A DNA stretch of 64,000 nucleotides from Myxococcus landrumus. GTDB lineage: Bacteria > Myxococcota > Myxococcia > Myxococcales > Myxococcaceae. The stretch covers positions 2,306,001 to 2,370,000 of the forward strand of contig NZ_CP071091.1 of assembly GCF_017301635.1 (NCBI RefSeq), in the 5' to 3' direction. Below are positions 40,101-64,000 of this stretch, piece by piece; position 1 is the stretch's first letter; each line of letters opens with the position of its first letter. Below the pieces are notes generated by a model. The model was not told the DNA's origin and did no database searches. It saw only the letters and a program-made list of their open reading frames with translations. A program made the translations under genes and the position numbers.

Positions 40101-40628
40101 GTGGCCTACGTGGTGGCTCGCGATGGGCAGACGGTGGACGCGACGGCGCTGCGGGACGCGGTGGCGCTGCGGCTGCCGGAGCACATGGTCCCCTCGCTGC
40201 TGGTGACGCTGCCGGCGCTGCCGCTCACGCCCAACGGCAAGGTGGACCGCAAGGCCCTCCCCGCCCCCACCGCGGCCCGAGCCTCACGCGCGGCCTACGT
40301 GGCGCCGCAGAGCCAGCTCGAGATGCAGATCTCCGACGTGTGGAAGCAGGTGCTCAACGTCGAGCAGGTCGGAGTGGACGACAACTTCTTCGACCTGGGC
40401 GGGCACTCGCTGCTCATGGTGCAGGTGCATGCGCGGCTCAAGACGGTGCTGGGCTCGGAGCTGCCGCTGCTCAAGCTGCTGGAGCACCCCACGGTCAGCG
40501 CGCTCGCGCGCTACCTGCGGCAGGGGCCCGCATCGAATGTCACCCCGGTGGAGTCTGCTCAGGACCGGGCGAAGCGCCAGCTCGAGAGCATGAAGCGGCA
40601 GCAACAGCGCGCCAGGAAACAGGGGTAG
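34161..40628 (+). CDS. NRPS1: FAAL-ACP-C-A(Gly-like, monooxygenase inserted)-PCP
   Basis: A 2155-residue starter synthase. Residues 1-575 are a fatty acyl-AMP ligase (YTSGSTGNPKG from 181; WLPMFHDMGLIG from 222; KTSSGKIQ from 557). An ACP follows (Ser648 in GLDSLM). A condensation domain covers ~705-1140 (HHIVTDG at 843). The adenylation domain starts ~1160, with YTSGSTGRPKG at 1323 and SFDIS at 1368. A luciferase-like flavin monooxygenase occupies ~1406-1746, and the A domain resumes (MYGPTETT near 1830). A PCP ends the chain (Ser2083). Selectivity residues read as DILQMGMIWK, close to known glycine codes. The expected step is loading of a fatty acid onto the ACP and condensation with glycine, which may be alpha-oxidised. 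The basic C-terminal tail (KRQQQRARKQG) may dock PKS1. PKS1 begins 8 bp later. Confidence 0.85.
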   Translation: MNQRNEKSVGDFHNLVDLLSYRAQVRGDALLYRFLESGDVDGPVEEWSYARLDARARALGAQLRASGATGERALLLYPPGMEFVAGFMGCLYAGVIAVPCYPPDPTRLERTLPRLRAIARDCGARYVLTTQFIVDMSELFKPQAPELAELQWMASDAVPESLAADWRRPELEANTLAFLQYTSGSTGNPKGVMVSHANILHNEAFITRGFGLDASRSSGMGWLPMFHDMGLIGKVLQPLYLGFPCTLMSPISFLQRPLRWLEAISHYQATCSGGPNFAYDLCVRKATEEDRAKLKLHSWDLAFNGAEPVRRETLERFAETFAPCGFRRTAFYPCYGLAETTLIVTGGTKGESYVHGHFVSDAMEQGRAEEAVAEAPGARTLVGAGISAPDQRVLIVHPESREVLPANSVGEIWVSGPSVAQGYWARPEETAHAFDAKLSSGEGPFLRTGDLAFLSSSGQLFVTGRLKDLLIIRGRNLYPQDLEMDAERAHRAVRAGCSAAFSVDVEGEERLVLAMEVDVRDGFDASAVVAAVRQRLAEQHTVHAHGIVLLQARSIPKTSSGKIQRRATKAAYLAGELEVVELSVAETEPVAAPPAPTLPLKELLVTASETERRAHVEEFLRHAVARTLRVDVRKLQGDSSLASLGLDSLMVLELHGMLESELGVALPAAFLWMSQTLEAAADKLLEAWQGVRPDFSLAAPPLTAGPRDGELPLSSGQLRLWFLDRLVPDSALYNVHFQLHLSGPLDVEALRRSLDALLTRHPLLNAAFPEVEGQPRLVVRASASLPLPQVDLRSEKPEARDAALRRLALEQAREPFRLTEGPTVRASLVRLGDNEHRLLMTQHHIVTDGWSVGVLGRELAALYRAHVAGTTASLPPPRLHYADYSRWQQGLGPLLDGQRAYWAKQLAGLPRLELPTDFTRPREPRVQGALHRLTLDRSLVESLRALGRREGCTLFITLTAAWTALLHRYSGQEDFAVGTVVANRERPELRDVLGFFAHTLALRADLAGQPSFRELLNRTRRTFHEALAHADLPFEDVVASARVPRGGADNPLFQTALLLEALPPTDMTVPGMEWRPVLPVPDGAVEGTSKFDLQLSLVETADGLSGALEYRTDLFAAATVARLASHLETVLRAAVNAVELKVDDLPLLGAEETRKLLVDWNDLTPAQADDAALCIHAQFRAQAARTPDAVAVAGDDATLTYAELDGRANALAWRLRDAGVGPEVRVGLCLERSAAMVVAMLGVLKAGGAYVPLDPDYPRERLAFMLEDSGAAVLLTETHLQGSIPPGRARVVLLDDAAVDAHEVRDAPPASGTSAAGLAYVIYTSGSTGRPKGVMVPHGGVANFFTAMDARLGHQPVGSWLAVTSISFDISVLELLWTLTRGFKVVVQGEGALLKAPSRVAAARRKPMELSLFYFADDAEKSTGDRYRLLMEGAKFADRHGFAAVWTPERHFHAFGGLYPSPAVASAAIAAVTERVAIRAGSVVLPLHHPVRVAEEWALVDNLSRGRVGISVASGWHANDFVFAPERYEKRRELMMEGLETVRRLWRGETLRMQGGAGAQVDITLRPRPIQKDLPVWLTAAGNPDTFITAGRMGCHVLTHLLGQTWDDLEKKLGLYRDAWREAGHAGDGHVTLMLHTFIGEDAAQVRAVVEKPFRDYLRSSADLMRGLGRTLGVDLDTATEADLDRLAAQAFERYFETSGLFGTPRSVRERMEQLRALGVDEVGCLIDFGIPAETVLASLPRLHEVKCQADRDGRRASTARSIPLNLREHAVTHLQCTPSLARALMAEPESVEALAGLRRLMVGGEALPSSLGTSLRQALGEGARLLNMYGPTETTIWSSTHDVRDESGPVASIGSPFSRTQFYLLDAKLRPVPVGVPGELFIGGAGVVRGYLSRPELTAERFVPDPFSREPGARVYRTGDRARWRDDGTVEFLGRVDHQLKVRGFRIEAGEIEAVLSARPEVREAVVVAREDTPGDVRLVAYVVARDGQTVDATALRDAVALRLPEHMVPSLLVTLPALPLTPNGKVDRKALPAPTAARASRAAYVAPQSQLEMQISDVWKQVLNVEQVGVDDNFFDLGGHSLLMVQVHARLKTVLGSELPLLKLLEHPTVSALARYLRQGPASNVTPVESAQDRAKRQLESMKRQQQRARKQG
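38376..39398 (+). other. Luciferase-like monooxygenase domain embedded in the adenylation domain
   Basis: About 340 residues of LLM-fold (KPMELSLFYF, WTPERHFHAFGG, GSVVLPLHHPVRVAEEW, GRVGISVASGWHANDF) lie between adenylation cores A4 (SFDIS) and A5 (YGPTE). This class of insert is known from some myxobacterial synthetases acting on glycine, where it oxidises the alpha carbon. The matching A domain at 62.3 kb lacks it. Confidence 0.85.
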
Positions 40629-40635
40629 GTCTGTC

Positions 40636-43600
40636 ATGGGGAGTCATGTGGAGTACCAGGGGGACTCAGGACTGGCCGTGGCCATCGTGGGCATGGCGGT
40701 GCGTGTACCTGGGGCGCAGGATGTCGATGCGTTCTGGCGGATGCTGCGCGCGGGTGTGGAAGGCATCACCTTCTTCTCCGACGAGGCACTGAAGTCCCTC
40801 GGCGTGGACCCGGCGTTCCTGGCCAATCCCAGCTTCGTTCGCGCCGCGCCTGTCCTGGAGAGGCCGGGCCGCTTCGACGCGGCCTTCTTCGGCTACGCCC
40901 CACGCGAGGCCGAGCTGCTGGACCCGCAGCACCGCATCTTCCTGGAGTGCGCGTGGACGGCGCTGGAGCATGCGGGCTACGCCCCGGGGCGAGTGCCGGG
41001 CACCACGGGCATCTTCGCGGGCTCCAGCCTGAGCAGCTACCTGCTCTTCAACCTGCTCTCACGCGCGGAGTTCCAGCAGGCCGAGGACACCTTCCCGGCC
41101 ATGGTGGCCAACGACAAGGACTTCCTCGCCACGCGCGTGGCCTACCACCTGGACTTCAAGGGCCCGGCCCTCACGGTCCAGACGGGCTGCTCCACGTCGC
41201 TGGTCGCCACGCACCTGGCCTGCCAGTCCCTGCTCGGCTACCAGTGTGACGTCGCGCTCGCGGGCGGCGTGTCCGTGCACGTGCCCCAGCGCACGGGCTA
41301 CACCTACCAGGAAGGCGGCATCACCTCGCCGGACGGGCACTGCCGCGCGTTCGATGCGAAGGGCCAGGGCACGCTCTTTGGCAGCGGCGCGGGCATCGTG
41401 GTGCTCAAGCGCCTGGACGACGCGCTCAAGGACGGCGACACCATCCACGCCGTCATTCGCGGCTCGGCCATCAACAACGACGGCGCGGTGAAGGTCGGCT
41501 TCACGGCGCCGGGCGTGGAGGGCCAGATGGAGGTCATCGCCCGGGCCCAGGCCATGGCGGACGTGACGCCGGACTCCATCTCCTACGTCGAAGCGCATGG
41601 CACGGCCACGCCGCTGGGTGACCCCATCGAGGTGCAGGCGCTCGATGGCGTGTTCCGCGCCGGCACCGACAAGCGCGCCTTCTGCGGGCTCGGCTCGGTG
41701 AAGACCAACGTGGGCCACCTGGATGCCGCGGCGGGAGTGACGGGGCTCGTGAAGACGGTGCTCTCGCTGGAGCACGCGGAGCTTCCCGCCAGCCTGAACT
41801 ACGAGGCGCCCAACCCGCGCATCGACTTCGCGAACAGCCCCTTCTACGTCAACGCCTCCCTGGCTCCCTGGCCGGCGGGCGCGACTCCTCGCCGCGCGGG
41901 CGTGAGCTCGTTCGGCATCGGCGGCACCAACGCACACCTCATCCTGGAGGAGTCGCCCGTCATCCCGTCGGGGGATGCGTCGCGCGCGTGGCAGGTCCTC
42001 GTCCTCTCCGCGCGGACTCCGACTGCGCTGGACGCGCTGACCACGTCGCTGCTCTCCCACTTGAAGGAACATCCCGAGCAGCCGCTCGCGGACGTGGCGT
42101 GGACGCTGCAATCGGGGCGCAAGGCGCTGGACCTCCGGCGCGTGGTGGTCTGCAAGGACCGGGACGATGCCGTGCGGGTGCTGGAGACGCGGGACCCGCA
42201 GCGCCTCTTCACGCTCGCTCCGAGTTCCTCGACGCCGTCCGCGGTGTTCATGTTCCCCGGCGGCGGTGCGCAGTACCCGGACATGGGCCGAGGGCTCTAT
42301 GCCGCCGAGCCCGCCTTCCGCGAGGCGGTGGACCAGTGCTGCACGCTCCTGCGTCCCCGGCTGGGCTTCGACCTGAAGCCCCTGATGTACCCGGATGCGG
42401 ACTCCGCCGCGACCGCGGGCCAGCGCCTCAAGCGGACCTCGCTGGCCCTGCCCGCGCTGTTCACCGTCGAGTACGCGATGGCGCGCCTGTGGGAGTCCTG
42501 GGGCCTGAAGCCCGAGGCGGTCATCGGCCACAGCCTGGGTGAGTACACGGCGGCGTGCCTGGCGGGAGTCTTCTCGCTGGAGGATGCGCTGGCGCTGGTG
42601 GTGCTGCGAGGCAAGCTCTTCGAGGAGCTGCCTGGTGGCGGCATGCTCAGCGTGCCCATGCCCGAGGCGGAGGTGCGGCCACTGCTCGGCGACGCCCTGT
42701 CGCTCGCGGCGGTGAACGGCCCCTCGCAGTGCGTGGTCGCCGGCACGGTGGAAGCCGTCGAGGCGCTGGCCGCGGAGCTCGCCCGCCGCGAGGTGGAGTT
42801 CCGGCACATCCCCATCGACGTGGCGGCGCACTCGCACCTGGTGACGCCGATTCTCGCGCGCTTCCAGGAGTTCATCGGGACGCTGCGGCGCAACGCCCCC
42901 ACCCTGCCGCTGATGTCCAACGTCACCGGCACGTGGATGACGCCCGAGGAAGCCGTGGACCCGGCCTACTGGACGCGGCACCTGCGGCACACGGTGCGCT
43001 TCGGCGACGGCATCCGCACGCTCGCGGAGCAGCCTCACCGCGTCTACCTGGAGGTCGGTCCGGGCCGCACGCTCGGCACGCTGGCGCGGCTCCAACTCAC
43101 GGGCCCCGGCGCGCCGCCCGTGCTTCCTTCCCTCCGCCATCCGCAGGACCCGGTGGCCGATGAGGAACTGCTCGCCGCCACGCTCGGAAAGCTCTGGGCC
43201 GCGGGCGTGGGCATCGACTGGGCCGCGGTGCGCGGAGACGCGCGGCGGCTGCGCGTGCCGTTGCCCACGTATCCCTTCGAAGGCCAGGACTACTGGCTCG
43301 CCCCCGAGGCGCCCTCCGCCGCACGGCGTGGCAACGCGCGAAAGAACGCGGACGTGGCCAGTTGGTTCTACGTCCCCGCCTGGCGGCGCGCTCCGCTGTC
43401 ACCTCCCAAAGTGGGCGCCGTCACTCCGCGAGACTGGGTCGTGCTCCAGGACTCGACGGGAGCTGGCGAGGCGCTCGTCAATGAGCTGGTGCGCGCGGGC
43501 CATCGCGTCGTGCGCGTCACGCCGGGCACGCATCTCCAGGAGCTGGGTGAGCACCACTTCAGCCTGGACCCGTCGGCTCCCGAGGAGACCTTCTTCCTGT

Positions 43601-45171
43601 TGAATGCCCTGAAGGCGAAGGGCCTCGACGTGGAGCGCGTGGTCCACCTGTGGAGCCTGGATGGCGACGGCGTCACGGACTTCGACCGCGCCCAGGAACG
43701 CGGCTTCTACTCCGTGCTCCGGCTGACGCGTGCGCTGGTGGAGGCTTCGCTGCCCAAGCGCGTGGAGCTGACGGTGGTGGGACGCCTCGCGCTGGAGGTG
43801 GAGAGCACGGACGAAGTTCATCCCGAGCTCGCCACGGTCCCCGCGCTGTGCAAGGTGATTCCGCAGGAGCACGACGGCATCGCATGCCGGTATGTCGACC
43901 TGGGCCGTGGCACGGGCCTGTCCACCGTGAGCGCGTTGTCGCACGAGCTGCTCTCCGACTCCGCCGAGCCCGTGGTGGCCCTGCGTGGAGCGCGGCGCCT
44001 CGTGCAGACCCATGAGTCGCTGCGGCTCGAGCAGGACGCCGTGGCCGCGCAGCCCTTCCGGACGCGCGGCGTGTACCTCATCACGGGTGGCCTGGGCGGC
44101 GTGGGATTGCTGCTCGCGGGCGAGCTCGCGCGGAGCCATCAGGCGCGGCTCGTCCTCGTGGGCCGCTCCGGGTTGGAGGTAGACCCGGGAGGCCACAAGC
44201 AGCGTGCGGTAAGAGACCTGGAAGCGGCGGGCGCGGAAGTGCTCGTGGTTCGCGCGGACGTGGCGGACGAGTCGCGGTTGCGCGGCGTGCTCACGGAGGC
44301 CGAAGCGCGCTTCGGAGCGGTGCATGGCGTCATCCACGCGGCGGGCCTCGCGGGTGAAGGCGCGGTGGCGCTGCTCGCCGGTCTGGACGCGGCGGCGTGC
44401 GCGCCCCACTTCCGAGCGAAGGTCCATGGCACCTACGCGCTGGAGCGGGCACTCGCCGGACGCTCGCTGGACTTCGTGTTGCTGGTGTCCTCCAACGCCG
44501 CCGTGCTCGGGGGCCTGGGACTTGGCGCCTATGGCGCGGCCAATGCGTTCCTCGATGCGTTCGCGGCCTCACGCGCGCACAGCGGCACGACGCGCTGGCT
44601 GAGCACCAACTGGGATGGCTGGCCCGTCGCCGAGGAAGGGACGCAGGGCGCGAAGACGAGCCTCGACGCGTTCGCCATGTCCTCGACGGAAGCCGTGGAG
44701 GCGTTCCGCCGCGTCGTCGAGTCCGCGCAAGGCGGACAGGTGGTGGTCTCCACGGGCGACCTGCCCGCGCGCGTGGCGCGATGGGTGAGGAAGGACGGCG
44801 CGAGCGCCGAGTCCTCCTCGGGCGCGGTGCATGAGCGTCCTCAGCTCGGCACCGAGTACGTGGCGCCCACGGATGACGTGGAGCTGGCGCTGGCGAAGGT
44901 CTGGCAGGAGCAGCTCGGACTGGCGCAGCTCGGCATCCACGACAACTTCTTCGACCTCGGCGGGAACTCGTTGCTGTGGCTCAAGATCGTGGGTCGGCTG
45001 AAGCGGGAGCTGGGGCGCGACATTCCGCTCACCTCCGTCTTCGAGGCCCCCACCGTCGCCACGCTGGCGAAGAAGCTGGGCGGGCCGGCCACCACGGCCC
45101 AGCCCCCGGGCTTCGAGACGAGTCAGAACCGAGGCGCGCAGCGCAGGGAGCGGCGAAGCCGCCGCGAGTGA
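40636..45171 (+). CDS. PKS1: KS-AT-KR-ACP
   Basis: A 1511-residue type I polyketide synthase module. KS residues ~15-440: Cys185 (TGCSTS), His in EAHGTATP and NVGHLDAAAG. AT ~535-840: Ser633 in GHSLGEY. The selectivity site, usually HAFH for malonyl or YASH for methylmalonyl, reads AAHS; with GHSLG I lean to malonyl. KR ~1140-1330: TGGLGGVG from Y1147, catalytic Ser in LVSSNA, Tyr1299 in AYGAANA, and Lys in RAKVHG, all present. ACP Ser1445 in DLGGNSLL. Expected result: one ketide unit with a beta-hydroxyl. No DH, ER or methyltransferase. The C-terminus is basic (RRERRSRRE), matching the tails of its neighbours. Confidence 0.85.
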   Translation: MGSHVEYQGDSGLAVAIVGMAVRVPGAQDVDAFWRMLRAGVEGITFFSDEALKSLGVDPAFLANPSFVRAAPVLERPGRFDAAFFGYAPREAELLDPQHRIFLECAWTALEHAGYAPGRVPGTTGIFAGSSLSSYLLFNLLSRAEFQQAEDTFPAMVANDKDFLATRVAYHLDFKGPALTVQTGCSTSLVATHLACQSLLGYQCDVALAGGVSVHVPQRTGYTYQEGGITSPDGHCRAFDAKGQGTLFGSGAGIVVLKRLDDALKDGDTIHAVIRGSAINNDGAVKVGFTAPGVEGQMEVIARAQAMADVTPDSISYVEAHGTATPLGDPIEVQALDGVFRAGTDKRAFCGLGSVKTNVGHLDAAAGVTGLVKTVLSLEHAELPASLNYEAPNPRIDFANSPFYVNASLAPWPAGATPRRAGVSSFGIGGTNAHLILEESPVIPSGDASRAWQVLVLSARTPTALDALTTSLLSHLKEHPEQPLADVAWTLQSGRKALDLRRVVVCKDRDDAVRVLETRDPQRLFTLAPSSSTPSAVFMFPGGGAQYPDMGRGLYAAEPAFREAVDQCCTLLRPRLGFDLKPLMYPDADSAATAGQRLKRTSLALPALFTVEYAMARLWESWGLKPEAVIGHSLGEYTAACLAGVFSLEDALALVVLRGKLFEELPGGGMLSVPMPEAEVRPLLGDALSLAAVNGPSQCVVAGTVEAVEALAAELARREVEFRHIPIDVAAHSHLVTPILARFQEFIGTLRRNAPTLPLMSNVTGTWMTPEEAVDPAYWTRHLRHTVRFGDGIRTLAEQPHRVYLEVGPGRTLGTLARLQLTGPGAPPVLPSLRHPQDPVADEELLAATLGKLWAAGVGIDWAAVRGDARRLRVPLPTYPFEGQDYWLAPEAPSAARRGNARKNADVASWFYVPAWRRAPLSPPKVGAVTPRDWVVLQDSTGAGEALVNELVRAGHRVVRVTPGTHLQELGEHHFSLDPSAPEETFFLLNALKAKGLDVERVVHLWSLDGDGVTDFDRAQERGFYSVLRLTRALVEASLPKRVELTVVGRLALEVESTDEVHPELATVPALCKVIPQEHDGIACRYVDLGRGTGLSTVSALSHELLSDSAEPVVALRGARRLVQTHESLRLEQDAVAAQPFRTRGVYLITGGLGGVGLLLAGELARSHQARLVLVGRSGLEVDPGGHKQRAVRDLEAAGAEVLVVRADVADESRLRGVLTEAEARFGAVHGVIHAAGLAGEGAVALLAGLDAAACAPHFRAKVHGTYALERALAGRSLDFVLLVSSNAAVLGGLGLGAYGAANAFLDAFAASRAHSGTTRWLSTNWDGWPVAEEGTQGAKTSLDAFAMSSTEAVEAFRRVVESAQGGQVVVSTGDLPARVARWVRKDGASAESSSGAVHERPQLGTEYVAPTDDVELALAKVWQEQLGLAQLGIHDNFFDLGGNSLLWLKIVGRLKRELGRDIPLTSVFEAPTVATLAKKLGGPATTAQPPGFETSQNRGAQRRERRSRRE

Positions 45172-45192: not shown

Positions 45193-48100
45193 GTGGACGA
45201 GAAGCAGACTCCAGACATCGACGACGCAGACCTCGCCATCATCGGCATGTCCGGGCGTTTCCCGGGTGCTCGGGACACGGCGGAGCTCTGGAGCAACGTC
45301 CGGGGCGGCGTGGAATCCATCCGGTTCCTCTCACCCGAGGAGTGTCGCGCCGCCGGCGCGTCGAAAGAGCAGGTCGAGGACCCCGACTTCGTGCGCGCCG
45401 CCGCGGTGTTCCCGGAGCCCGAGTCCTTCGACGCCGCGTTCTTCGACATGCCGCCCCGCGAGGCGGAGCTGACGGACCCACAGCACCGTGTCTTCCTGGA
45501 GATCTGCTGGGAGGCCCTGGAGCACGCGGGCTATTCGCCTCGGGACTACTCCGGCGCCATCTCCGTGTACGGCGGCGCCACGCTCAACACCTACCTGCTG
45601 ATGAACCTGGCGAGGAACCCGCGCGTGCTGGGCTCCGTGGAGCCGGTGCAGGTCAACATCGGCAACGGCACGGACTTCCTGGCGACGCGCGTCTCGTACA
45701 AGTTGAACCTGCGTGGCGCCAGTCACGCCGTGCAGAGCGCGTGCTCGACGTCGCTGGTCGCCGTGCACCAGGCCTGCCAGAGCCTGCTCAATGGGGAGTG
45801 TGACATCGCGCTCGCGGGTGGCGCGTCCGTCAACGTGAGCTTCCTCAACGGCTACCGTCACGTGGAGGGCGGAATGGCGTCCCCGGATGGGCGCTGCCGC
45901 CCGTTCGACGCGAAGGCCCGGGGCACGCTGTTCGGCAGCGGCGCGGGCGTGGTGGTGCTGAAGAAGCTGCGGGCCGCGCTGCGCGACGGCGACACCGTGC
46001 ACGCGGTCATCAAGGGTTCGGCCATCAACAACGATGGCTCGCTCAAGGCCGGCTACACGGCGCCGGGCGTGGAGGGTCAGGCCCAGGTCGTCGCCGAGGC
46101 GCTCGCGGCGGCCGGCGTGGACGCGGACACCATCGGCTACGTGGAGGCCCATGGCACCGCGACGCCGCTGGGGGACCCCATCGAGGTGGAGGCGCTCACG
46201 CGGGCCTTCCGTTCCACCACCCAGCGCAGGCGCTTCTGCGCGCTCGGCTCGGTCAAGGGCAACGTCGGACACCTGGACGCGGCGGCGGGCATCACCGGAC
46301 TCATCAAGACCGCCCTCGCCTTGAAGCACGGAGAGCTGCCCCCCAGCCTCCACTACGAGCGGCCCAACCCGGCCATCGACTTCGACGGCAGCCCCTTCTA
46401 CGTCAACGCGACCCTCAAGCCCTGGCCCACGAGCGCGCTGCCCCGGCGCGCGGGCGTCAGCTCCTTCGGCGTCGGTGGCACCAACGCACACGTCGTCCTG
46501 GAGCAGCCGCCGCGTCCGGTCGACAGCGCTCCTTCGCGACGCGCGTGGCAGTTGCTCCCGCTGTCGGCGCGCACGTCGTCCGCGCTGGAGTCCAGCACGG
46601 GCCGTCTGGCGAAGGCGCTCGAGGGCACCGCCGACAAGGCCCTCGCGGACGTGGCCTGGACGCTCCAGGTGGGACGTCAGCGCTTCGGCCAGCGCCGCTT
46701 CGTCCTCGCGCGCGGCGTGAGCGACGCGGTGGCGGTGCTCTCCCAGCCGGACAGCCCTCGTGTCCACACCGCGACGGAGGACGGCGTGGAGCGCCCGGTG
46801 GCGTTCCTGTTCCCCGGCCAGGGCTCGCAGCACGTGGGCATGGGTCGCGCGCTCTACGACGCGGAGCCGGTGTTCCGCGCGGAGGTGGACCGGTGCTCGG
46901 AGCTGCTCAAGCCGCACCTCGGCGGCAGGGACCTGCGCGACGTGCTGTACCCGAAGTCGGGTGACGCGGCGGAGAACGAGAAGACGCTGGCGCGCACGGA
47001 GCTCACCCAGCCCGCGCTCTTCACCCTCGAGTACGCCACCGCGTGCCTCTGGATGTCGTGGGGCGTGAAGCCCGCCGCCATGCTGGGACACAGCATTGGC
47101 GAGTATGTGGCCGCATGCCTCGCGGGGGTCTTCACGCTGGAGCACGCGCTTCAGCTCGTGGCGACACGAGGCCGGCTGATGCAATCCCTCCCCGCGGGCT
47201 CCATGCTCGCGGTGCCCCTCAGCGAAGAGGAGCTGCGGCCTTCGCTCGGGACCGAGCTGAGCCTCGCCGCGGTGAACGCGCCCATGCAGTGCGTCGCCTC
47301 CGGGCCCACGGAGGCGATTGAACGGCTGCGTCGGCAGCTCGAGGAGTCCGGCGTGCGGTGCCACGTGCTCGTCACGTCGCATGCCTTCCACTCCGCGATG
47401 ATGGACCCCATCCTCGACGCCTTCACGGCGCGAGCGGCGGCCATGCCGTTGCGGCCCCCCACCCTGCCCTTCATCTCCAACGTGACGGGGACGTGGATCA
47501 CCACCGAGCAGGCGACGAGCCCGCGGTACTGGGCACAGCACCTGCGCGGCGCGGTGCGCTTCGCGGACGGCCTGCACGCACTCCTCTCCGACCCCAAGCG
47601 CGTCCTGCTGGAGGCGGGACCAGGCCAGGTGCTCAGCCGTCTCGCGCGGCGGCATCCGGCGTCTTCACCTTCGCGCCCCGTGCTCGGCTCCATGCCGATG
47701 CCTCAGGACACGGTGGCCGAGGGCACACCGCCGCTGGCGTACACGACGCTGGGCAACCTGTGGCTCGCGGGCGTCAACGTCGACTGGCGGAGCTTCCACG
47801 GCGACGAGCGGCGTCAGCGCCTCCCGCTCCCGACCTACCCCTTCGAGCGGCAGCGCTTCTGGGTGGAGCCCGAGGAGCAGCACACGCACGGTGGAGCCAC
47901 CGTGGCCCAGGCCACGTCCGAGCGCCTCCCGGCGCCACAGGAGCAGGCGCCGCTGGAGCGGTGGTTCCACGCCCCCTCCTGGAAGCGTGCGCCGCTCGCG
48001 CCCGTGAGCGCCACGAAGGCGCCGGATCCGCGCGTGTGGCTGGTGTTCGAGGACGCGGCGGCAACCGCTGATTCGCTCCTGTCCTCCGAGCCCGGCACCG

Positions 48101-49881
48101 AGCACGTGGTGGTGCGTGTGAAGCCAGGCACCGGGTTCCAGCGTGTTCACGACGCGGCCTTCACCGTGGCTCCTGGTTCTCAGTCGGATCTGCGCGAGCT
48201 TGTGAACACGTTGCGCGAGTCGGGCCGGCTCCCGGACGCGGTGCTTCATCTCTGGAGCCTCACGTCGGAGCTGCCGACGTCCTTCGCGCAGACCCAGGCC
48301 CACGGCTACCACACGCTCGTGGGGCTCTCGCGAGTCCTCGTCGAGCTCCCCCCCGAGCGCCCCTGCACCGTCTTCGTGGTCTCCAACCACGTGCACGACG
48401 TCACCGGAGAGGAAGCCCTCTCTCCCGACAAGGCGACGGTGCTCGGCCCCTGCCGGGTCATCCCGCAAGAGCATCCCCACCTGCGCTTCCACCACGTGGA
48501 TGTGGTGACGGAGGCCGGGGCTCGACTGTCGCCCGGGAGTCTCCAGGCGCTCCGCACCGAGCTGCGCGCCGCTCCGCGCGAAACGGTGGTGGCATTGCGA
48601 GGAGCCCACCGTTGGGTTCCGGCCCTGGAGCCCCTGCCCCTGCCCGAGGCTCCCGCGCCGCATCCCACCGCGCGCGCGGGTGGCGTCTATCTGCTCGTCC
48701 ATGGCCTCGGAGGTGTCGGCGCCATGAACGCGAGGGCGCTCGCACGGCTGTCTCCTGGCGCGAAGCTTGTGTGCCTGGAGCCCGTGGGCTTCCCTGCTCG
48801 CGACACCTGGGACACCCATGTGTCCACACCGGACACGGGCGAGGACTGGGCCCAGCGCATCCGCCGCGCACGCGAGCTCGAAGCGATGGGCGCGGAGGTC
48901 CATGTCGTCCCCGTCGACCTGACGAACGAGGAGTCCCTGCGCACGGCGGTGGACTCGACGGTCTCCCGCTGGGGCGCGCTCCACGGCGTGGTGCACGCGG
49001 CATGGCTGCCGCGTCAGAAGGTCGCCCGCCTCGTCTCCGAGACGGGACCAGAAGAGACCGCGTGGCACTTCGACCCACGGGTCCGGGGACTGGCGCTGCT
49101 CGACGCGGTGCTCGGAGACCGGGCCCTGGACTTCCGCGTGGTGGCGTCGTCCATCTCCGCCGTGCTCGGTGGCATCTCCACCGTCGCCCACACCGCCGCG
49201 AGCGCGTGGCAGGACGCCTTCGCGCAAGCGACGACCCGAACGGGCCGGCGCTGGACGAGCGTGGGCTGGGACGTGGTGCGAGTGGAGGACTACGGCGCGC
49301 ACCTGGGTGCACGCGGTGAGGCCATCGACCGGCTCGCCGTCACGCCCGAGCAAGGCGCGGAGGTCCTGAGCCGCATGCTCGCGCACGCGGCCGGGCCGTG
49401 GCTGGTCGTCTCCACGCACGATGTGAAGGCGCGGCAAGCACCGCCGCAGCCGCTGCCCGCGCAAGCGGAGGTCGTTGCGCGGCCGCTGCATCCCCGTCCG
49501 GCGAACCTTCGCAGTGCCTATGTGGCTCCGACGACGGAGCTGGAGCGGCTGCTCGCGGACCTCTGGCAGCAGATGCTGGGCGTGACGCCCATCGGCATCC
49601 AGGACAACTTCTTCGAGCTGGGAGGCGACTCACTCGTCGCGGTCCAGCTCACCGACCAGCTCAAGCGCCGGCTCAACCTCAGCGTGCCCGCGTCCAGCCT
49701 CTACGAAGGGGTCACCGTGAAGGCGCTGGCGGCCTTGATTCAGCCGCCCGACGCGAACCCGGGCGCGGCACAAGGCGAGGCGGACGAGCGCGAGTCCACC
49801 GTCCAGCGCCGCAAGCAGAACCTCCAGCGTCAGCGCTCGCGTCGGCGCGCGGAGGATGAGGACGCGGAGGAAGGCAGCTGA
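45193..49881 (+). CDS. PKS2: KS-AT-KR(inactive)-ACP
   Basis: A 1562-residue module; the start is a GTG with AAGGAG 8 bp upstream. KS Cys184 (SACSTS); AT Ser634 in GHSIGEY with HAFHS at 730-734, the malonyl-CoA signature. The KR at ~1160-1360 is degenerate: the cofactor motif reads LVHGLGGVG, the catalytic Lys is Arg1296 (DPRVRG), the Tyr is His1333 (AHTAAS) and the following Asn is Ser. I infer no ketoreduction, leaving a beta-keto group. ACP Ser1480 in ELGGDSLV. The C-terminal tail is long and charged (RRKQNLQRQRSRRRAED). The stop overlaps the glycosyltransferase ATG by one base. Confidence 0.85.
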   Translation: MDEKQTPDIDDADLAIIGMSGRFPGARDTAELWSNVRGGVESIRFLSPEECRAAGASKEQVEDPDFVRAAAVFPEPESFDAAFFDMPPREAELTDPQHRVFLEICWEALEHAGYSPRDYSGAISVYGGATLNTYLLMNLARNPRVLGSVEPVQVNIGNGTDFLATRVSYKLNLRGASHAVQSACSTSLVAVHQACQSLLNGECDIALAGGASVNVSFLNGYRHVEGGMASPDGRCRPFDAKARGTLFGSGAGVVVLKKLRAALRDGDTVHAVIKGSAINNDGSLKAGYTAPGVEGQAQVVAEALAAAGVDADTIGYVEAHGTATPLGDPIEVEALTRAFRSTTQRRRFCALGSVKGNVGHLDAAAGITGLIKTALALKHGELPPSLHYERPNPAIDFDGSPFYVNATLKPWPTSALPRRAGVSSFGVGGTNAHVVLEQPPRPVDSAPSRRAWQLLPLSARTSSALESSTGRLAKALEGTADKALADVAWTLQVGRQRFGQRRFVLARGVSDAVAVLSQPDSPRVHTATEDGVERPVAFLFPGQGSQHVGMGRALYDAEPVFRAEVDRCSELLKPHLGGRDLRDVLYPKSGDAAENEKTLARTELTQPALFTLEYATACLWMSWGVKPAAMLGHSIGEYVAACLAGVFTLEHALQLVATRGRLMQSLPAGSMLAVPLSEEELRPSLGTELSLAAVNAPMQCVASGPTEAIERLRRQLEESGVRCHVLVTSHAFHSAMMDPILDAFTARAAAMPLRPPTLPFISNVTGTWITTEQATSPRYWAQHLRGAVRFADGLHALLSDPKRVLLEAGPGQVLSRLARRHPASSPSRPVLGSMPMPQDTVAEGTPPLAYTTLGNLWLAGVNVDWRSFHGDERRQRLPLPTYPFERQRFWVEPEEQHTHGGATVAQATSERLPAPQEQAPLERWFHAPSWKRAPLAPVSATKAPDPRVWLVFEDAAATADSLLSSEPGTEHVVVRVKPGTGFQRVHDAAFTVAPGSQSDLRELVNTLRESGRLPDAVLHLWSLTSELPTSFAQTQAHGYHTLVGLSRVLVELPPERPCTVFVVSNHVHDVTGEEALSPDKATVLGPCRVIPQEHPHLRFHHVDVVTEAGARLSPGSLQALRTELRAAPRETVVALRGAHRWVPALEPLPLPEAPAPHPTARAGGVYLLVHGLGGVGAMNARALARLSPGAKLVCLEPVGFPARDTWDTHVSTPDTGEDWAQRIRRARELEAMGAEVHVVPVDLTNEESLRTAVDSTVSRWGALHGVVHAAWLPRQKVARLVSETGPEETAWHFDPRVRGLALLDAVLGDRALDFRVVASSISAVLGGISTVAHTAASAWQDAFAQATTRTGRRWTSVGWDVVRVEDYGAHLGARGEAIDRLAVTPEQGAEVLSRMLAHAAGPWLVVSTHDVKARQAPPQPLPAQAEVVARPLHPRPANLRSAYVAPTTELERLLADLWQQMLGVTPIGIQDNFFELGGDSLVAVQLTDQLKRRLNLSVPASSLYEGVTVKALAALIQPPDANPGAAQGEADERESTVQRRKQNLQRQRSRRRAEDEDAEEGS
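48661..49290 (+). other. Degenerate ketoreductase domain of PKS2
   Basis: The positions of Lys, Tyr and Asn in the short-chain dehydrogenase active site are Arg1296, His1333 and Ser. The NADPH loop also departs from TGGLGGVG. The fold pattern is otherwise kept, so it probably remains as a structural domain. Confidence 0.8.
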
Positions 49882-51179
49882 TGCGAGCCATCCTCACCAA
49901 CTTCGGCACGCTCGGAGACGTCCAGCCCTTCGTGGCGCTGGCCGTCGAGCTCCGTCGGCACGGGCATCACCCCGTGCTCGCCGCCGCGCCCTCGTACCGT
50001 GAGCTCGCGGAGCAGCACGGCCTCGACTTCCTGCCCGTGGGTCCGGACCTCCGGGCAGCCCAGAGCGGAATCACGCAGGCGATGATGGGCAGCCCCGACG
50101 TCATCCATGACGCCAGCGGAATGCTCCAGCTCTTCCAGCCGCTCGTGGCGTCCCTACCGCGCATGCTGGAGGACCTTCGCGCCGCGTGTCGTGGCGCGGA
50201 CGTGCTCATCAGCGGACGCGTCCAGCCGGCCGCGCGCATGGTGCATGACCTGACACACGTGCCCTTCGTCACGGTGCTGGTGGAGCACAGCGGAAGTGGC
50301 GGCGGTGGCCCGGCGTTCCAGGCCGCCGTGCGCGGACTGGTCAACCCCCTGCGCGAGTCCCTGCGCCTGCCGCCGCTCGACAATCCGCTGGTGGATGGGC
50401 TGTCGCCGCAGCTCGTGCTCACGGCCTTGAGCCGGCACGTGCGGCCGCCCGCCTCGGACCTCCCGGCGCACCACCACACCGTGGGCTATTGCCTGCTCGA
50501 GGAGCCGGCCTTCACACCCGACGCGGACCTGGCGGCGTTTCTCGCGGAGGGCGAGGCTCCGGTCTGCATCACCTTCGGCAGCATGACCCACGGCGACCCG
50601 GTGGCGCTGACGAACACCTTGGTCGACGCCACGGTGCGCGCGGGACGAAGGGCCCTCATCCAGCAAGGCTGGAGTGGACTGGGCCAGCGCGCCCTCCCGC
50701 CCTCGGTGCGAGTCGTCGGACAGGTGCCCCACTCGTGGCTCTTCTCGCGCGTGTCGTGCGTCGTGCACCACGGCGGCGCGGGCACCACGGGCGCGGCGTT
50801 CCGCGCGGGTGTTCCGCAGGTCGTGGTGCCGCATACGTATGACCAGTTCACCTGGGGCGAGGTCGTCCAGGAGCTTCGCTGCGGCGGAGCGGCGGTGCCC
50901 ATCGGTGAGCTGAGCGTGGAGCGGCTCGCGGAGGCCCTCGGCACGGTGCTGGGCGGCGAGGAGCATCGAGCCTCCGCGGCGCGCGTGGGTGAGCAACTGC
51001 GCGCGGAGCACGGCGCGGCGAAGGCACGTCACCTCATCGAGGACCTGGTCCGTCGAGTGGGGCTTGCCTCGCCAGCGAGCGAAGGGCCCGAGGCCCCGGA
51101 AGAGACAGAAGACGAGGAACGGCGCCAGCGCCGCAGGACCGCGCTGAAGCAGCAAAGGGCGAGGAAGGTCGACACTTGA
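49881..51179 (+). CDS. UGT/MGT-type glycosyltransferase with synthase-like basic tail
   Basis: A 432-residue GT-B glycosyltransferase of family 1 type. The N-terminus ILTNFGTLGDVQPF is the acceptor-domain start. The C-terminal domain has ITFGSMTHGD, and the nucleotide-sugar signature HHGGAGTTGAAFRAG from His296, then PHTYDQFTWG. It transfers a sugar to a hydroxyl of a small molecule. The last ~25 residues (EERRQRRRTALKQQRARK) are unlike normal GT endings and resemble the tails of NRPS1, PKS1 and PKS2. It lies inside the operon between two PKS genes, overlapping PKS2 by one base. I infer glycosylation of the cluster product, perhaps while it is bound to the assembly line. No sugar-biosynthesis genes are in the window. 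Confidence 0.8.
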   Translation: MRAILTNFGTLGDVQPFVALAVELRRHGHHPVLAAAPSYRELAEQHGLDFLPVGPDLRAAQSGITQAMMGSPDVIHDASGMLQLFQPLVASLPRMLEDLRAACRGADVLISGRVQPAARMVHDLTHVPFVTVLVEHSGSGGGGPAFQAAVRGLVNPLRESLRLPPLDNPLVDGLSPQLVLTALSRHVRPPASDLPAHHHTVGYCLLEEPAFTPDADLAAFLAEGEAPVCITFGSMTHGDPVALTNTLVDATVRAGRRALIQQGWSGLGQRALPPSVRVVGQVPHSWLFSRVSCVVHHGGAGTTGAAFRAGVPQVVVPHTYDQFTWGEVVQELRCGGAAVPIGELSVERLAEALGTVLGGEEHRASAARVGEQLRAEHGAAKARHLIEDLVRRVGLASPASEGPEAPEETEDEERRQRRRTALKQQRARKVDT

Positions 51180-51199: not shown

Positions 51200-54100
51200 A
51201 TGGCCACGGATTCGTCCGACACGGACACCACGGGTCTGGAGATTGCTGTCATCGGCATGGCGGGGCGGTTCCCGGGGGCGAAGGACCTGGAAGCGTTCTG
51301 GCGCAACCTGAAGGACGGCGTGGAGTCCATCCAGTTCCTCACGGACGAGGACCTGGAGCCCAGCGCGCTCGACACGGCGGCGATCCGCTCGGACCCCAAC
51401 TACGTGAAGGCGGCCGCCATCCTCGAGGACGCGGACCTCTTCGACGCGGGCTACTTCGGCGTCACCCCCAAGGAAGCGGAGGTGATGGACCCGCAGCAGC
51501 GCGTCTTCCTGGAGTGCGCGGTGGAGGCCCTGGAGCACGCGGGCTACGACGCCGAGCGCTTCAAGGGACGCATCGGTGTGTACGCCGGCGCCCGCACGGA
51601 CACGTACCTCTTCAACCTCTTCTCCAACCCCGCGGCCGTCGGAGGACTGGACCCCTTCGAGATTGGCCTCGGCAACGACCTGGCCTTCCTCACCACGCGC
51701 GTGGCGCACCGGCTCAACCTGCGCGGGCCCGCGTACTCGGTCCACACGGCGTGCTCCACGGCCCTGGTCGCGCTGCACCTGGCGGGACAGGCCCTGCTCG
51801 CGGACGAGTGCCGGATGGCCGTCGCGGGCGGAGTGGCCATCAACGTCCCGCAGAAGGTGGGCTACCTGTACCAGTACGGCGGCATCGCCTCACCGGACGG
51901 CCACTGCCGGGCGTTCGACGCGAAGGCGGCTGGCACCATCTTCGGCAGCGGCATCGGACTCGTGGTCCTCAAGCGCCTGGAAGACGCGCTCGAGGATGGC
52001 GACACCATCCACGCCGTCATCAAGGGCTCCGCCATCAACAACGACGGCGCCGTGAAGGCCAGCTTCACCGCGCCCAGCGTGCAGGGCCAGGCCACGGTCA
52101 TCAAGGACGCGCTCGCCGCCGCGGAAGTCTCCGCGGATTCCATCTCCTACGTGGAGACGCACGGCACCGGCACCGCGCTGGGAGACCCCATCGAGCTGCG
52201 CGCGTTGACCAAGGCGTTCGGTGGAAAGAGCCTGGGACGTCGCACCGTGCCCATCGGCTCCGTGAAGACGAACGTGGGGCACCTGGACGCGGCGGCCGGA
52301 AGCGCGAGCCTGTTGAAGGCCATCCTGGCGATGAAGCACCAGCAGCTTCCGCCCAGCCTCCACTTCGAGTCCCCCAACCCGCAGATCGACTTCGACAGCG
52401 GCCCCTTCTTCGTGAACACCACGCTCCAGCCGTGGGCACGCGGCCGGGCGCCTCGCCGCGCGGGAGTCAGCTCGTTCGGCATCGGCGGCACCAACGCCCA
52501 CGTCATCCTGGAGGAGGCTCCCGCCGCGCAGCCCGCCGCCGCGGGTCGGCCGTGGGAGCTGATGGTCCTGTCCGCGCGCAGCCACACGGCGCTGGACACC
52601 GCCACCGCGCGGCTCGCGCAGCACCTGGAATCGCATCCGGAGCTCTCTCTCGCGGATGTGGCGCACACGCTTCAAGTCGGCCGCAAGGCGCACGCCCACC
52701 GCCGTGTCGTGGTGGCTCGCGACACGCGAGATGCCGTGCGAGTCCTGCGCATGGCGGAGCCCCGCCGCGTCCTCTCTGGAACCCATGAGACGAGCAATCG
52801 TCCCGTGTCGTTCCTCTTCTCGGATGCAGGAGTGGCGACGTCGCTGGAGCCGCTGTACCGCGCGGAGCCGGCCTTCCGTGAAGAGGTGGACCGCTGCGCC
52901 GAGCTGCTCCAGCCGCGCCTGGGCGTGGACCTGCGCACCGTGCTGTATCCCGAGGAGGGTGGACGTCCCGCGCGCTCGGGAGCGGTGGACGCGGCCGCGC
53001 GCTTCGTGGAGCCGTATGCGCTGGCGCGCCTCTGGATGTCGTGGGGCATCTCCCCGGAGACCCTGCTGGGCGAGGGCCTGGGCGCGTGGGTCGCCGCCTG
53101 CCTCGCGGGCGTGCTCCCGCTGGACGAAGCCTTGAGCCTGACCGTGGCCCGGGGCGAAGGCCGCACGGCGATGCCGAACGCCGCGAGCCTGAAGGCGCCG
53201 GAGGTTCCGGTTCTTCTCGCGGCCACGGGCGCCCTCGTCACGGCCTCCGAGGCCCTGCGCCCGGAGACGTGGCGGGACGCGGCGAATCCCGCGACACGGA
53301 TGGACGATGCGCTTCGCGAGCTGGTGAAGGAGCCCACGCGGGTCGTGCTCGCGATGTGCGCTCCGGGAACGCTCGTCGAGCGGGCCCGCACGCACGCGGG
53401 CACCACGGGAACCCGTGCGCTGCGCACGTGTGTCCCCGCGACCGGTGACACCCAGCCTTCGTTGGCGACGGTCCTGGAGACGCTGGGCCAGCTCTGGCTG
53501 GACGGCGTGGAAGTGGACTGGGAGGCCGTGAACGAAGGACGCGAGCGGCGGCGCGTGCCGCTGCCCACCTATCCCTTCGAGCGCCAGCGCTACTGGGTCC
53601 CTCCCGCGGCGCGCGTCGAGGCGTCGCAGGCGCAAGGCCAGGTTCCGCAGGGGAAGCTGGTGGACATGGCGGACTGGTTCCACACGCCCGCATGGCAGCG
53701 CACGGCGCCCATCGCCCTGGACCGCAAGGCCCTGGCCGAGCGCCGCTGCTGGGTGGTGTTCGTGGACGGGCTCGGCGTCGGTGAGGCGCTGTGCCGTCGG
53801 CTGGAGGACTCCGGCCAGGACGTGGTGAGGATTCGCCAGGGAAGCGCCTTCATGCGGGACGCCGCGCGCCGCTACGCGCTGGACCCGCGGGTTCGCGGCG
53901 ACTACGCCACGCTGTGGAAGGACCTGGCGGACCAGGAGCTGAGCCCGTCCGTGGTGGTCCACCTGTGGAGCCTCGGCGCCTCGGGCGCGGGGCGCACGGG
54001 CCCCGAGCTGTTCCGGGACGTCCAGGACCTGGGCTACTACAGCCTCCTGCACCTGGGTCAGGCGCTCGCCACGGGGGACACGTCGCGTCCCGTGCGGCTG

Positions 54101-55576
54101 GAGGTCGTGACGGACCGGCTGGCCAACGTGGCCGGCGAGAGCACCGCGCTCCCGGAGAAGGCCACCCTGCTCGGACCGTGCAAGGTGATTCCGCAGGAGC
54201 AGGAGCACGTCACCACCCGCTGCATCGACCTGATGGCCCCCGAGCCGCGCAGCGCGGGCGTGGAGCAGGTGGCGGAGCGGCTGTTGTCGGAGCTGAGTCA
54301 GCGCTCGAAGGACGCGGTGGTGGCCTGGAGAGGCAACCTTCGCTTCGCGCAGGCGCTCTCGCCCCTTCGTCTTGAGCCGTCTGGCGATGCCCCCGCGCCG
54401 CTGCGTGAGCAGGGCGTCTATCTCATCACCGGTGGCCTCGGCGGCGTGGGCTTGATGCTGGCCGACCATCTGGCGCGCACCTTCAAGGCACGGCTCGCGC
54501 TGCTGGGCCGGACCGCGATGCCCGCCCCGTCCGAGTGGGACGGCTACCTGGCCACCCACGCGAAGGACGACGCGATGGCCCAGCGCATCCTCCGGGTGCG
54601 CGAGCTGGAACAGGCCGGCGCGCAGGTGATGGTGGTGCACGCGGATGTCGCGAACGCGGAGCAGCTCGAGGCGGCCGTGGCCCAGGTGGAGGCGCGGTTC
54701 GGAGCGCTGAACGGCGTGCTCCACTGCGCCGGTGTCACGCATGGCTCGTCGCTCTACAACCCGCTGACGGACATTGGGCGGAACGAGTCGGAGACGCAGT
54801 TCGGTCCCAAGGTCTACGGCACCTATGCACTGGAGAAGGTGCTGAGCCGCCGCGCCGCGGACTTCGTGCTCCTGTTCTCCTCCAACGCCGCGGTGCTCGG
54901 CGGTCTCGGCTACCTGACCTACGCGTCGTCCAACCTCTTCATGGATGCCTTCGCGCAGGCCCGCGCGGGTCACACCGGCACGCGCTGGGTCAGCGCGTCG
55001 TGGGACCCGTGGCCGGAAGAGACGAAGCACACGAACGTTCGCACCAGCATGGACCAGTACGCGATGACGCCCCGGGAAGGTGCCGAGGCGGTGCAGCGGC
55101 TGGTGACGCTCGGCGTGGACGGACACGTGGTGGTCGCCACGGGCGACCTGGCCCAGCGCTGGCGGCTGTGGATTCAGCGCGACACGTCCAAGCCCGCACA
55201 GGGCACGCGCGCCGCGGGCAAGCCTCGCCGCTCGAAGACGCCGTTCGTTGCGCCTGCCACGGACCTGGAGAAGCAGCTCGCCTCGCTCTGGCAGGAGATC
55301 CTGGGCGTGGACAGCGTGGGCCTGAACGACAACTTCTTCGACCTGGGCGGCCACTCGCTGCTGGCCACACGTGTGGCCGGACGCCTGCGCACCCAGTTCA
55401 ACTTCGACATTCCCCTGGCGAAGCTCTTCGAGGCCGCCACGGTCTCTGCCCTGGCGAAGCTGGTGGCGGACCACCAGGCCTCGCTGGAGGACGCCGCCAG
55501 TCAGGCGGCCCTCGATGAGCTGGCCAACCTGAGTGACGAAGAGATTGAAGCCGAGCTCGCGCGACGCTCGCGATAG
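51200..55576 (+). CDS. PKS3: KS-AT(inactive)-KR-ACP
   Basis: A 1458-residue module. I prefer the ATG at 51200, with GGAGAAG upstream; a TTG at 51176 is in frame and overlaps the GT stop. KS Cys185 (TACSTA) and ETHGTGT/NVGHLDAAAG are intact. The AT region (~535-750) is gutted: the N-terminal GQG motif reads FLFSDAG, the GHSxG motif reads GEGLG (E625, G626, so no nucleophile Ser), and the small subdomain holding the HAFH site is missing. KR from Y1074 (TGGLGGVG) keeps Tyr1241 (TYASSN) and Lys (GPKVYG). ACP Ser1386 in DLGGHSLL. It needs an extender from another AT, or does not extend. The C-terminal linker (LDELANLSDEEIEAELARR) differs from the basic tails upstream. Confidence 0.85.
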   Translation: MATDSSDTDTTGLEIAVIGMAGRFPGAKDLEAFWRNLKDGVESIQFLTDEDLEPSALDTAAIRSDPNYVKAAAILEDADLFDAGYFGVTPKEAEVMDPQQRVFLECAVEALEHAGYDAERFKGRIGVYAGARTDTYLFNLFSNPAAVGGLDPFEIGLGNDLAFLTTRVAHRLNLRGPAYSVHTACSTALVALHLAGQALLADECRMAVAGGVAINVPQKVGYLYQYGGIASPDGHCRAFDAKAAGTIFGSGIGLVVLKRLEDALEDGDTIHAVIKGSAINNDGAVKASFTAPSVQGQATVIKDALAAAEVSADSISYVETHGTGTALGDPIELRALTKAFGGKSLGRRTVPIGSVKTNVGHLDAAAGSASLLKAILAMKHQQLPPSLHFESPNPQIDFDSGPFFVNTTLQPWARGRAPRRAGVSSFGIGGTNAHVILEEAPAAQPAAAGRPWELMVLSARSHTALDTATARLAQHLESHPELSLADVAHTLQVGRKAHAHRRVVVARDTRDAVRVLRMAEPRRVLSGTHETSNRPVSFLFSDAGVATSLEPLYRAEPAFREEVDRCAELLQPRLGVDLRTVLYPEEGGRPARSGAVDAAARFVEPYALARLWMSWGISPETLLGEGLGAWVAACLAGVLPLDEALSLTVARGEGRTAMPNAASLKAPEVPVLLAATGALVTASEALRPETWRDAANPATRMDDALRELVKEPTRVVLAMCAPGTLVERARTHAGTTGTRALRTCVPATGDTQPSLATVLETLGQLWLDGVEVDWEAVNEGRERRRVPLPTYPFERQRYWVPPAARVEASQAQGQVPQGKLVDMADWFHTPAWQRTAPIALDRKALAERRCWVVFVDGLGVGEALCRRLEDSGQDVVRIRQGSAFMRDAARRYALDPRVRGDYATLWKDLADQELSPSVVVHLWSLGASGAGRTGPELFRDVQDLGYYSLLHLGQALATGDTSRPVRLEVVTDRLANVAGESTALPEKATLLGPCKVIPQEQEHVTTRCIDLMAPEPRSAGVEQVAERLLSELSQRSKDAVVAWRGNLRFAQALSPLRLEPSGDAPAPLREQGVYLITGGLGGVGLMLADHLARTFKARLALLGRTAMPAPSEWDGYLATHAKDDAMAQRILRVRELEQAGAQVMVVHADVANAEQLEAAVAQVEARFGALNGVLHCAGVTHGSSLYNPLTDIGRNESETQFGPKVYGTYALEKVLSRRAADFVLLFSSNAAVLGGLGYLTYASSNLFMDAFAQARAGHTGTRWVSASWDPWPEETKHTNVRTSMDQYAMTPREGAEAVQRLVTLGVDGHVVVATGDLAQRWRLWIQRDTSKPAQGTRAAGKPRRSKTPFVAPATDLEKQLASLWQEILGVDSVGLNDNFFDLGGHSLLATRVAGRLRTQFNFDIPLAKLFEAATVSALAKLVADHQASLEDAASQAALDELANLSDEEIEAELARRSR
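52805..53440 (+). other. Degenerate acyltransferase remnant of PKS3
   Basis: Compared with PKS1 and PKS2, the region lacks the nucleophile Ser and about 60-80 residues corresponding to the ferredoxin-like small subdomain. The post-AT linker (PTYPFERQRYW) is kept. Confidence 0.8.

Positions 55577-55685: not shown

Positions 55686-64000
<8,315 letters not shown>

What the first reader, a model, noticed from the sequence alone, without database searches (positions are those of the whole stretch)
52805..53440. PKS3 has lost its acyltransferase function in an otherwise complete module
Seen: GHSxG is replaced by GEGLG, GQG by SDAG, and the small subdomain with the selectivity site is deleted, while KS, KR and ACP keep their catalytic residues. 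Inference: malonate is loaded by an AT of PKS1/PKS2 or another protein, or PKS3 passes the chain on after reduction only. This is an AT-less module inside a cis-AT line.
Basis: partly seen in the sequence, partly recalled or inferred. Interest (0 to 1): 0.6.

Follow-up and report, generated by a model that had tools for sequence, protein, structure and literature searches.

The report
Acyltransferase-stripped module in a Myxococcus synthase
One of three polyketide modules in a myxobacterial lipopeptide pathway has cleanly lost the core of its building-block loader but is otherwise kept intact by evolution, so it very probably borrows a loader from elsewhere, a trick already known from several other pathways.

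Summary
PKS3 (51200-55576) keeps KS, KR and carrier residues, but its AT has SDAG for GQG, GEGLG for GHSxG, and lacks 81 residues (the small subdomain with the catalytic His) after aa 664. It is no sequencing error: 13 of 145 genomes searched carry the same stripped AT in an open frame. KS3 and KR3 are as constrained as in the intact modules; the remnant is relaxed but not neutral and is modelled as a compact scaffold closest to OzmQ KS1, a solved AT-less ketosynthase.

New here: PKS2's KR is dead or absent in all 21 clusters where it could be read, including eight whose PKS3 AT is intact, so the complementary AT-/KR- pair is not evidence of a split module. AT loss happened twice in myxobacteria, and similar excisions recur in cyanobacteria and other phyla.

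Best reading: PKS3 still elongates and its carrier is charged in trans, by the PKS2 or PKS1 AT or by FabD (no discrete AT in the cluster). Non-elongating transfer is not excluded. Haliamide and FK228 are precedents: a new member of a known kind.

The parts
51200..55576 (+). PKS3: KS - AT remnant - KR - carrier protein, 1458 aa
51239..52504 (+). PKS3 KS domain, Cys-His-His intact
52808..53404 (+). AT remnant (large subdomain only), inactive
52820..52831 (+). SDAG in place of GQG
53069..53083 (+). GEGLG in place of GHSxG (catalytic Ser lost)
53191..53192 (+). junction of the 81-residue deletion (small subdomain with the catalytic His)
53405..53599 (+). post-AT linker, retained
54413..55039 (+). 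PKS3 KR, catalytic residues intact
55265..55471 (+). PKS3 carrier protein, Ser intact
40636..45171 (+). PKS1: KS-AT-KR-ACP, AT and KR residues intact; candidate AT donor
45193..49881 (+). PKS2: KS-AT-KR(dead)-ACP; candidate AT donor
46798..47658 (+). PKS2 AT, GHSIG and HAFHS intact
48682..49317 (+). PKS2 KR, dead (Tyr to His, Lys to Arg)
49881..51179 (+). glycosyltransferase between PKS2 and PKS3, with a docking-like basic tail
34095..40628 (+). NRPS1: fatty acyl-AMP ligase - ACP - C - A with luciferase-like monooxygenase - PCP
55686..63998 (+). NRPS2, runs on beyond the window

Best explanation
PKS3 is a working elongation module whose own AT has decayed to a structural scaffold. Shown: the AT lacks Ser, His and the small subdomain, while KS, KR and carrier stay under strong purifying selection. 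Inferred: malonate is put on the PKS3 carrier in trans, most likely by the AT of the neighbouring PKS2 (or PKS1), or by one of the four FabD-type proteins of the genome; KS3 then condenses and KR3 reduces, so the chain still gains three ketides (OH, C=O, OH), as expected from sister clusters whose PKS3 AT and KR are both intact.
For: Catalytic and structural loss in 13 of 13. KS3 keeps both His in 13 of 13, and its dN/dS (0.03-0.16 over eight genus pairs) is like that of KS1 and KS2 (0.03-0.21), while the remnant is at 0.17-0.44. Sister clusters with an intact PKS3 AT share a KR-less PKS2 (eight of them: six M. xanthus-type, G017, G024), so an internal ketone is an old feature that trans-loading would preserve. 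Stripped ATs in cyanobacteria come with a discrete AT (L041, L043, L047) or AT-ACP protein (L037, L061) in the locus. Best structural match by Z is OzmQ KS1 (Z 61.0, rmsd 2.7, 670 aligned). Donors exist: two intact ATs in the cluster, four FabD equivalogs over cut-off.
Against: No discrete AT is in the cluster, unlike the Anabaena- and Brasilonema-type loci. No donor was identified; carrier similarity gives only a weak hint (carriers of stripped PKS3 are on average 45.5% identical to PKS2 carriers, against 41.0% for AT-intact ones). Constraint on KS3 would also be expected if it only transferred the chain. Two stripped-AT KSs in other phyla have lost the HGTGT His, so stripped modules can be non-elongating. 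Nothing here measures product length.
Confidence: 0.6

Rival explanations
1. Split or complementary module: PKS2 (AT+, KR-) condenses, KS3 takes the beta-keto chain without elongating and KR3 reduces it, so PKS2 and PKS3 together make one ketide.
For: PKS2 lacks a working KR in 12 of 12 clusters of this type where it could be read, and PKS3 has a working KR in 13 of 13. Five Nostoc-type loci show the same neighbours: AT stripped, KR intact beside AT intact, KR degenerate (3) or absent (2).
Against: PKS2 is also KR-less in clusters whose PKS3 AT is intact (6 M. xanthus-type, G017, G024), so the pairing is not tied to AT loss. KS3 keeps the HGTGT His in 13 of 13, whereas the non-elongating KS of the hangtaimycin bimodule has Cys-Asn-His (PMC8456789, passages). 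In the Nostoc-type loci the gene order is the other way round.
Confidence: 0.2
2. PKS2 works twice (stuttering) and PKS3 only receives and reduces.
For: Proposed for irumamycin, where the last module has an AT without its Ser and the module before is thought to iterate (PMC11672594, passages).
Against: Would leave KS3 as a transfer enzyme, with the same objections as above; PKS2 would have to accept its own product. No sequence sign of iteration was looked for.
Confidence: 0.1
3. The module is a decaying or dead relic.
For: The AT remnant has raised dN/dS (0.17-0.44 over genus pairs, 0.64 against G083).
Against: Open frame in 13 of 13 genomes, KS3 and KR3 strongly constrained, place between PKS2 and NRPS2 kept.
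Confidence: 0.03
4. Sequencing or assembly error.
For: None.
Against: Same deletion in 13 genomes, with different residues around it in G083.
Confidence: 0.01

Closest known systems
OzmQ KS1 of oxazolomycin (PDB 4oqj)
   Same: KS with KS-AT linker, post-AT linker and a partial AT; best Z in the structure comparison and the same break in the sequence alignment (query 6-562 and 738-796). That it is the 'partial AT' structure of Lohman et al. 2015 is recalled; the paper is not held.
   Different: Its remnant is shorter (about 72 chain residues between the two aligned parts, 175 in the query). That oxazolomycin uses a discrete AT (OzmC) is named in PMC6164871 (passages).
Haliamide synthase of a myxobacterium (modules 2 and 5 without AT)
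   Same: AT-less modules among AT-bearing ones in a hybrid line; a stand-alone AT elsewhere in the genome is proposed to serve them (PMC5577590, passages).
   Different: Whether those modules keep an AT remnant was not examined here.
FK228, didemnin and thalassospiramide synthases
   Same: Hybrid NRPS-PKS lines reported to recruit an AT of primary metabolism (PMC5577590, passages).
   Different: No AT at all in the didemnin pathway; here two intact cis ATs sit next door.
Colibactin ClbC and ClbK (PDB 8xbl, 8cjh)
   Same: KS with a shorter AT region than ClbI, Z 58.5 and 57.9. That they are loaded in trans is recalled.
   Different: A discrete AT in the cluster (recalled).
Type A dehydrating bimodule (hangtaimycin)
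   Same: Two modules sharing one elongation would be the analogue of the split-module rival (PMC8456789, passages).
   Different: The second KS there lacks the HGTGT His; KS3 has it.
Irumamycin module 12
   Same: Terminal module with an AT lacking its Ser in a cis-AT line (PMC11672594, passages).
   Different: Explained there by iteration of module 11; no subdomain loss is described in the passages seen.

Membership tests
AT-less module with AT remnant, loaded in trans (OzmQ-like, mixed cis/trans line) | KS catalytic triad intact | tested here: met
   13 of 13
AT-less module with AT remnant, loaded in trans (OzmQ-like, mixed cis/trans line) | AT Ser and His lost, KS-AT linker and post-AT linker retained | tested here: met
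   13 of 13; model pLDDT mostly 83-97 across the remnant
AT-less module with AT remnant, loaded in trans (OzmQ-like, mixed cis/trans line) | Carrier protein intact | tested here: met
   13 of 13
AT-less module with AT remnant, loaded in trans (OzmQ-like, mixed cis/trans line) | A donor AT available to the module | tested here: inconclusive
   Two cis ATs in the cluster and four FabD equivalogs in the genome; none shown to serve PKS3
AT-less module with AT remnant, loaded in trans (OzmQ-like, mixed cis/trans line) | Carrier is malonylated in trans | not testable with these tools
   needs in vitro loading
Canonical trans-AT PKS | Discrete AT encoded with the line | tested here: not met
   No PF00698 hit between 1.96 and 4.37 Mb of the genome other than PKS1, PKS2 and PKS3
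Non-elongating bimodule (KS0) | KS lacks the HGTGT His | tested here: not met
   His present in 13 of 13
Non-elongating bimodule (KS0) | Two modules add one ketide | not testable with these tools
   product unknown

The most novel reading that the evidence does not exclude
A cis-AT 'ketoreducing bimodule': PKS2 (KS-AT-ACP) and PKS3 (KS-AT remnant-KR-carrier) act together as one distributed module, an arrangement that arose in myxobacteria and, in the other gene order, in Nostoc. The more moderate version is that one cis AT natively charges two carriers on two proteins.
Probability: 0.2. Interest if true: 0.6.

Novelty: new member of a known kind. Interest (0 to 1): 0.35.

Why it matters
It corrects product prediction for a family of myxobacterial lipopeptide clusters: domain counting would either drop a ketide or assume self-loading. 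The sister clusters with an intact AT at the same place form a natural experiment on how a cis-AT module becomes dependent on another AT. Excision of the small subdomain, leaving linkers and large subdomain, appears in several phyla, which suggests a repeated route from cis to trans loading.

Tried and rejected
I first favoured the split-module reading, because PKS2 (AT+, KR-) and PKS3 (AT-, KR+) complement each other in every cluster of this type. The sister clusters rejected it as an inference: PKS2 is KR-less there too although the PKS3 AT is intact.

I first took the Nostoc-type loci for the same cluster. The KS tree puts their KSs with cyanobacterial ones, and the gene between the PKSs in L036 is a PLP decarboxylase and no glycosyltransferase, so I read them as analogues.

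A one-clade origin of the stripped AT within myxobacterial PKS3 was tested and rejected (p-AU 0.00028). The wider count (fewest 12 changes, 7 forced by starred branches) rests on FastTree with long branches flagged. Neither tree can tell loss of an AT from its replacement by recombination.

Carrier similarity as a pointer to the donor AT gave only a weak difference. Paper searches listed nothing that I recognised from titles and abstracts as describing this cluster; I do not claim it is unpublished. The product was not identified. In the fold comparison many KS and KS-AT chains score within a few Z units, so the first rank of OzmQ KS1 is not a sharp distinction.

Rows left out of counts: G012 has no PKS2 on the contig with its stripped PKS3 (hence 12 of 13 for PKS2); its PKS2 on another contig has a dead KR and makes 21 with the 12 and the eight. 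G079's PKS2 is cut before its KR and G011's was not fetched. L033, L034 and L035 duplicate genomes already counted and were dropped from the tree, as were 4 KSs with no AT; only 9 of the 13 stripped myxobacterial PKS3 rows were put in that tree. L060 was relabelled partial because its GHS and AFHS are present. In one search the 22 stripped-AT KSs include L033, L034, L035 and L060: 20 have Cys-His-His and 2 (L045, L063) Cys-Gln-His. The residue table covers 19 chosen loci of the 79 found. The alignment given to the structure prediction held 68 of 96 sequences at hand.

Full report
Observation. PKS3 runs from 51200 to 55576 (1458 aa). Pfam finds KS, KR and carrier at full strength, but Acyl_transf_1 only over model positions 18-118 at 30.4 bits, below its cut-off of 32.7; PKS1 and PKS2 score 174 and 195 bits. 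In the alignment of the three proteins PKS3 has SDAG for GQG, GEGLG for GHSxG, and one gap of 81 columns after aa 664 that corresponds to PKS2 aa 673-753 and takes out HAFHS and the rest of the small subdomain.

Not an artefact. The AT region with its linker (320 aa) was searched in 145 genomes. Thirteen, including this one, have a match over the full length at 50% identity or more without a stop: twelve in the genus, one (G083) in another genus of the family. In all 13, Ser and His are gone and 7 of 89 small-subdomain residues remain; KS Cys-His-His, KR Lys, Ser, Tyr and the carrier Ser are present. The same region found in named records includes Myxococcus llanfairpwllgwyngyll..., M. qinghaiensis and Pyxidicoccus fallax.

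Selection. Nei-Gojobori dN/dS over eight pairs within the genus: KS3 0.03-0.16, KR3 0.03-0.39, carrier 0.04-0.18, AT remnant 0.17-0.44; AT2 0.07-0.24; the dead KR2 0.07-0.35. So the module is in use, and the remnant is relaxed but not free, as expected of a scaffold. The model of KS plus remnant has mean pLDDT 91, mostly 83-97 over the remnant. Its best match by Z is OzmQ KS1 of oxazolomycin (Z 61.0, rmsd 2.7, 670 aligned), followed within a few units by other AT-less KSs and by KS-AT didomains; Foldseek ranks a ClbI KS-AT chain first and OzmQ KS1 fifth.

What PKS2 adds. The KR of PKS2 is dead: Tyr to His and Lys to Arg in 11 of 12 clusters of this type, and the whole domain is absent in the twelfth, G083. 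This makes PKS2 and PKS3 look like complementary halves. Sister clusters in the genus are the control. In six M. xanthus-type genomes (G001, G006, G007, G018, G021, G023) and in G017 and G024, PKS2 has no KR while the PKS3 orthologue has an intact AT (GHSLGEY and AAHS). Its KR is dead (Tyr to Ser) in the six, intact in G024 and cut off by the locus end in G017. G011, G079 (another genus of the family), G026 (contig 30) and G012 (contig 54) have intact AT and KR in the PKS3 orthologue. PKS2 thus lacks a working KR with or without a working AT in PKS3. The internal ketone is an old feature, and loading PKS3 in trans keeps the product as in the sisters; pass-through would remove a ketide and the ketone.

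History. A careful KS tree of 32 rows rejects a single clade for the 13 stripped rows (p-AU 0.00028): G083 stands apart, and the sister of the other twelve is an AT-intact PKS. In a wider KS tree of 118 rows the 27 stripped rows need 12 changes, at least 7 forced by well-supported branches (FastTree, long branches flagged). Stripped ATs with similar boundaries occur in Nostoc-type loci (L036, L038, L039, L040, L042), Anabaena-type (L041, L043, L047), Brasilonema (L037, L061) and single loci of other phyla. The Anabaena- and Brasilonema-type loci encode a discrete AT or an AT-ACP protein with intact Ser and His. In the two loci examined by Pfam (L041, L037) these stand with a 3-hydroxyacyl-CoA dehydrogenase, an acyl-CoA dehydrogenase and a HAD protein, a set that I read, from recall, as making an ACP-bound extender. 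In the Nostoc-type loci the stripped, KR-bearing PKS is followed by an AT-bearing PKS whose KR is degenerate (three loci) or absent (two), as in Myxococcus but in the other gene order.

Donor. Genome-wide, Acyl_transf_1 is found in this cluster only in PKS1, PKS2 and the remnant, and the neighbouring hits lie at 1.96 and 4.37 Mb. Four proteins pass the FabD cut-off. Basic tails on NRPS1, PKS1, PKS2 and the glycosyltransferase, and a different tail on PKS3 with a conserved head on NRPS2, fit the order PKS1, PKS2, PKS3, NRPS2 (by eye). An AT-null module rescued by a free AT is established in engineered systems (PMC6164871, passages); natural lines reported to borrow an AT include FK228, didemnin, thalassospiramide and, in a myxobacterium, haliamide (PMC5577590, passages).

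Verdict. Real, functional, and a new member of a known kind: an AT-less module with an AT scaffold in a cis-AT line. Loading in trans is most likely (0.6); a non-elongating transfer (0.2) or iteration of PKS2 (0.1) are open. The AT donor and the product are unknown.

Noticed in passing
48682-49317: KR of PKS2 is dead (Tyr to His, Lys to Arg) and is absent altogether in G083 and in the M. xanthus-type clusters.
   Followed up: yes
49881-51179: The glycosyltransferase carries a C-terminal basic tail like those of NRPS1, PKS1 and PKS2, in the 12 clusters printed, as if it docked on the assembly line.
   Followed up: partly
L146 2166-11561: A second PKS of the same genome has an AT with a similar internal gap (model 1-139 then 205-279) and GSCTG near the active site, after a loading part with two ATs.
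   Followed up: partly
L147 2224-6000: Another KS-KR protein of the same genome with only a scrap of AT left (model 72-117).
   Followed up: no
L124-L129: M. xanthus-type sister clusters: PKS3 orthologue with intact AT but KR Tyr to Ser.
   Followed up: yes
L027 and L134 (G026); L031, L133, L142 (G012): Two genomes carry both a stripped and an AT-intact PKS3 block.
   Followed up: partly
L037, L041: Discrete AT or AT-ACP proteins that begin with a KS-AT linker, as if cut out of a module, beside HAD, acyl-CoA dehydrogenase and 3-hydroxyacyl-CoA dehydrogenase genes.
   Followed up: partly
L036 6652-8355: PLP-dependent decarboxylase gene between two PKS genes of a Nostoc-type locus.
   Followed up: no
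34095-40628: NRPS1 adenylation domain holds an inserted luciferase-like monooxygenase of the MupA/Atu3671 family.
   Followed up: no
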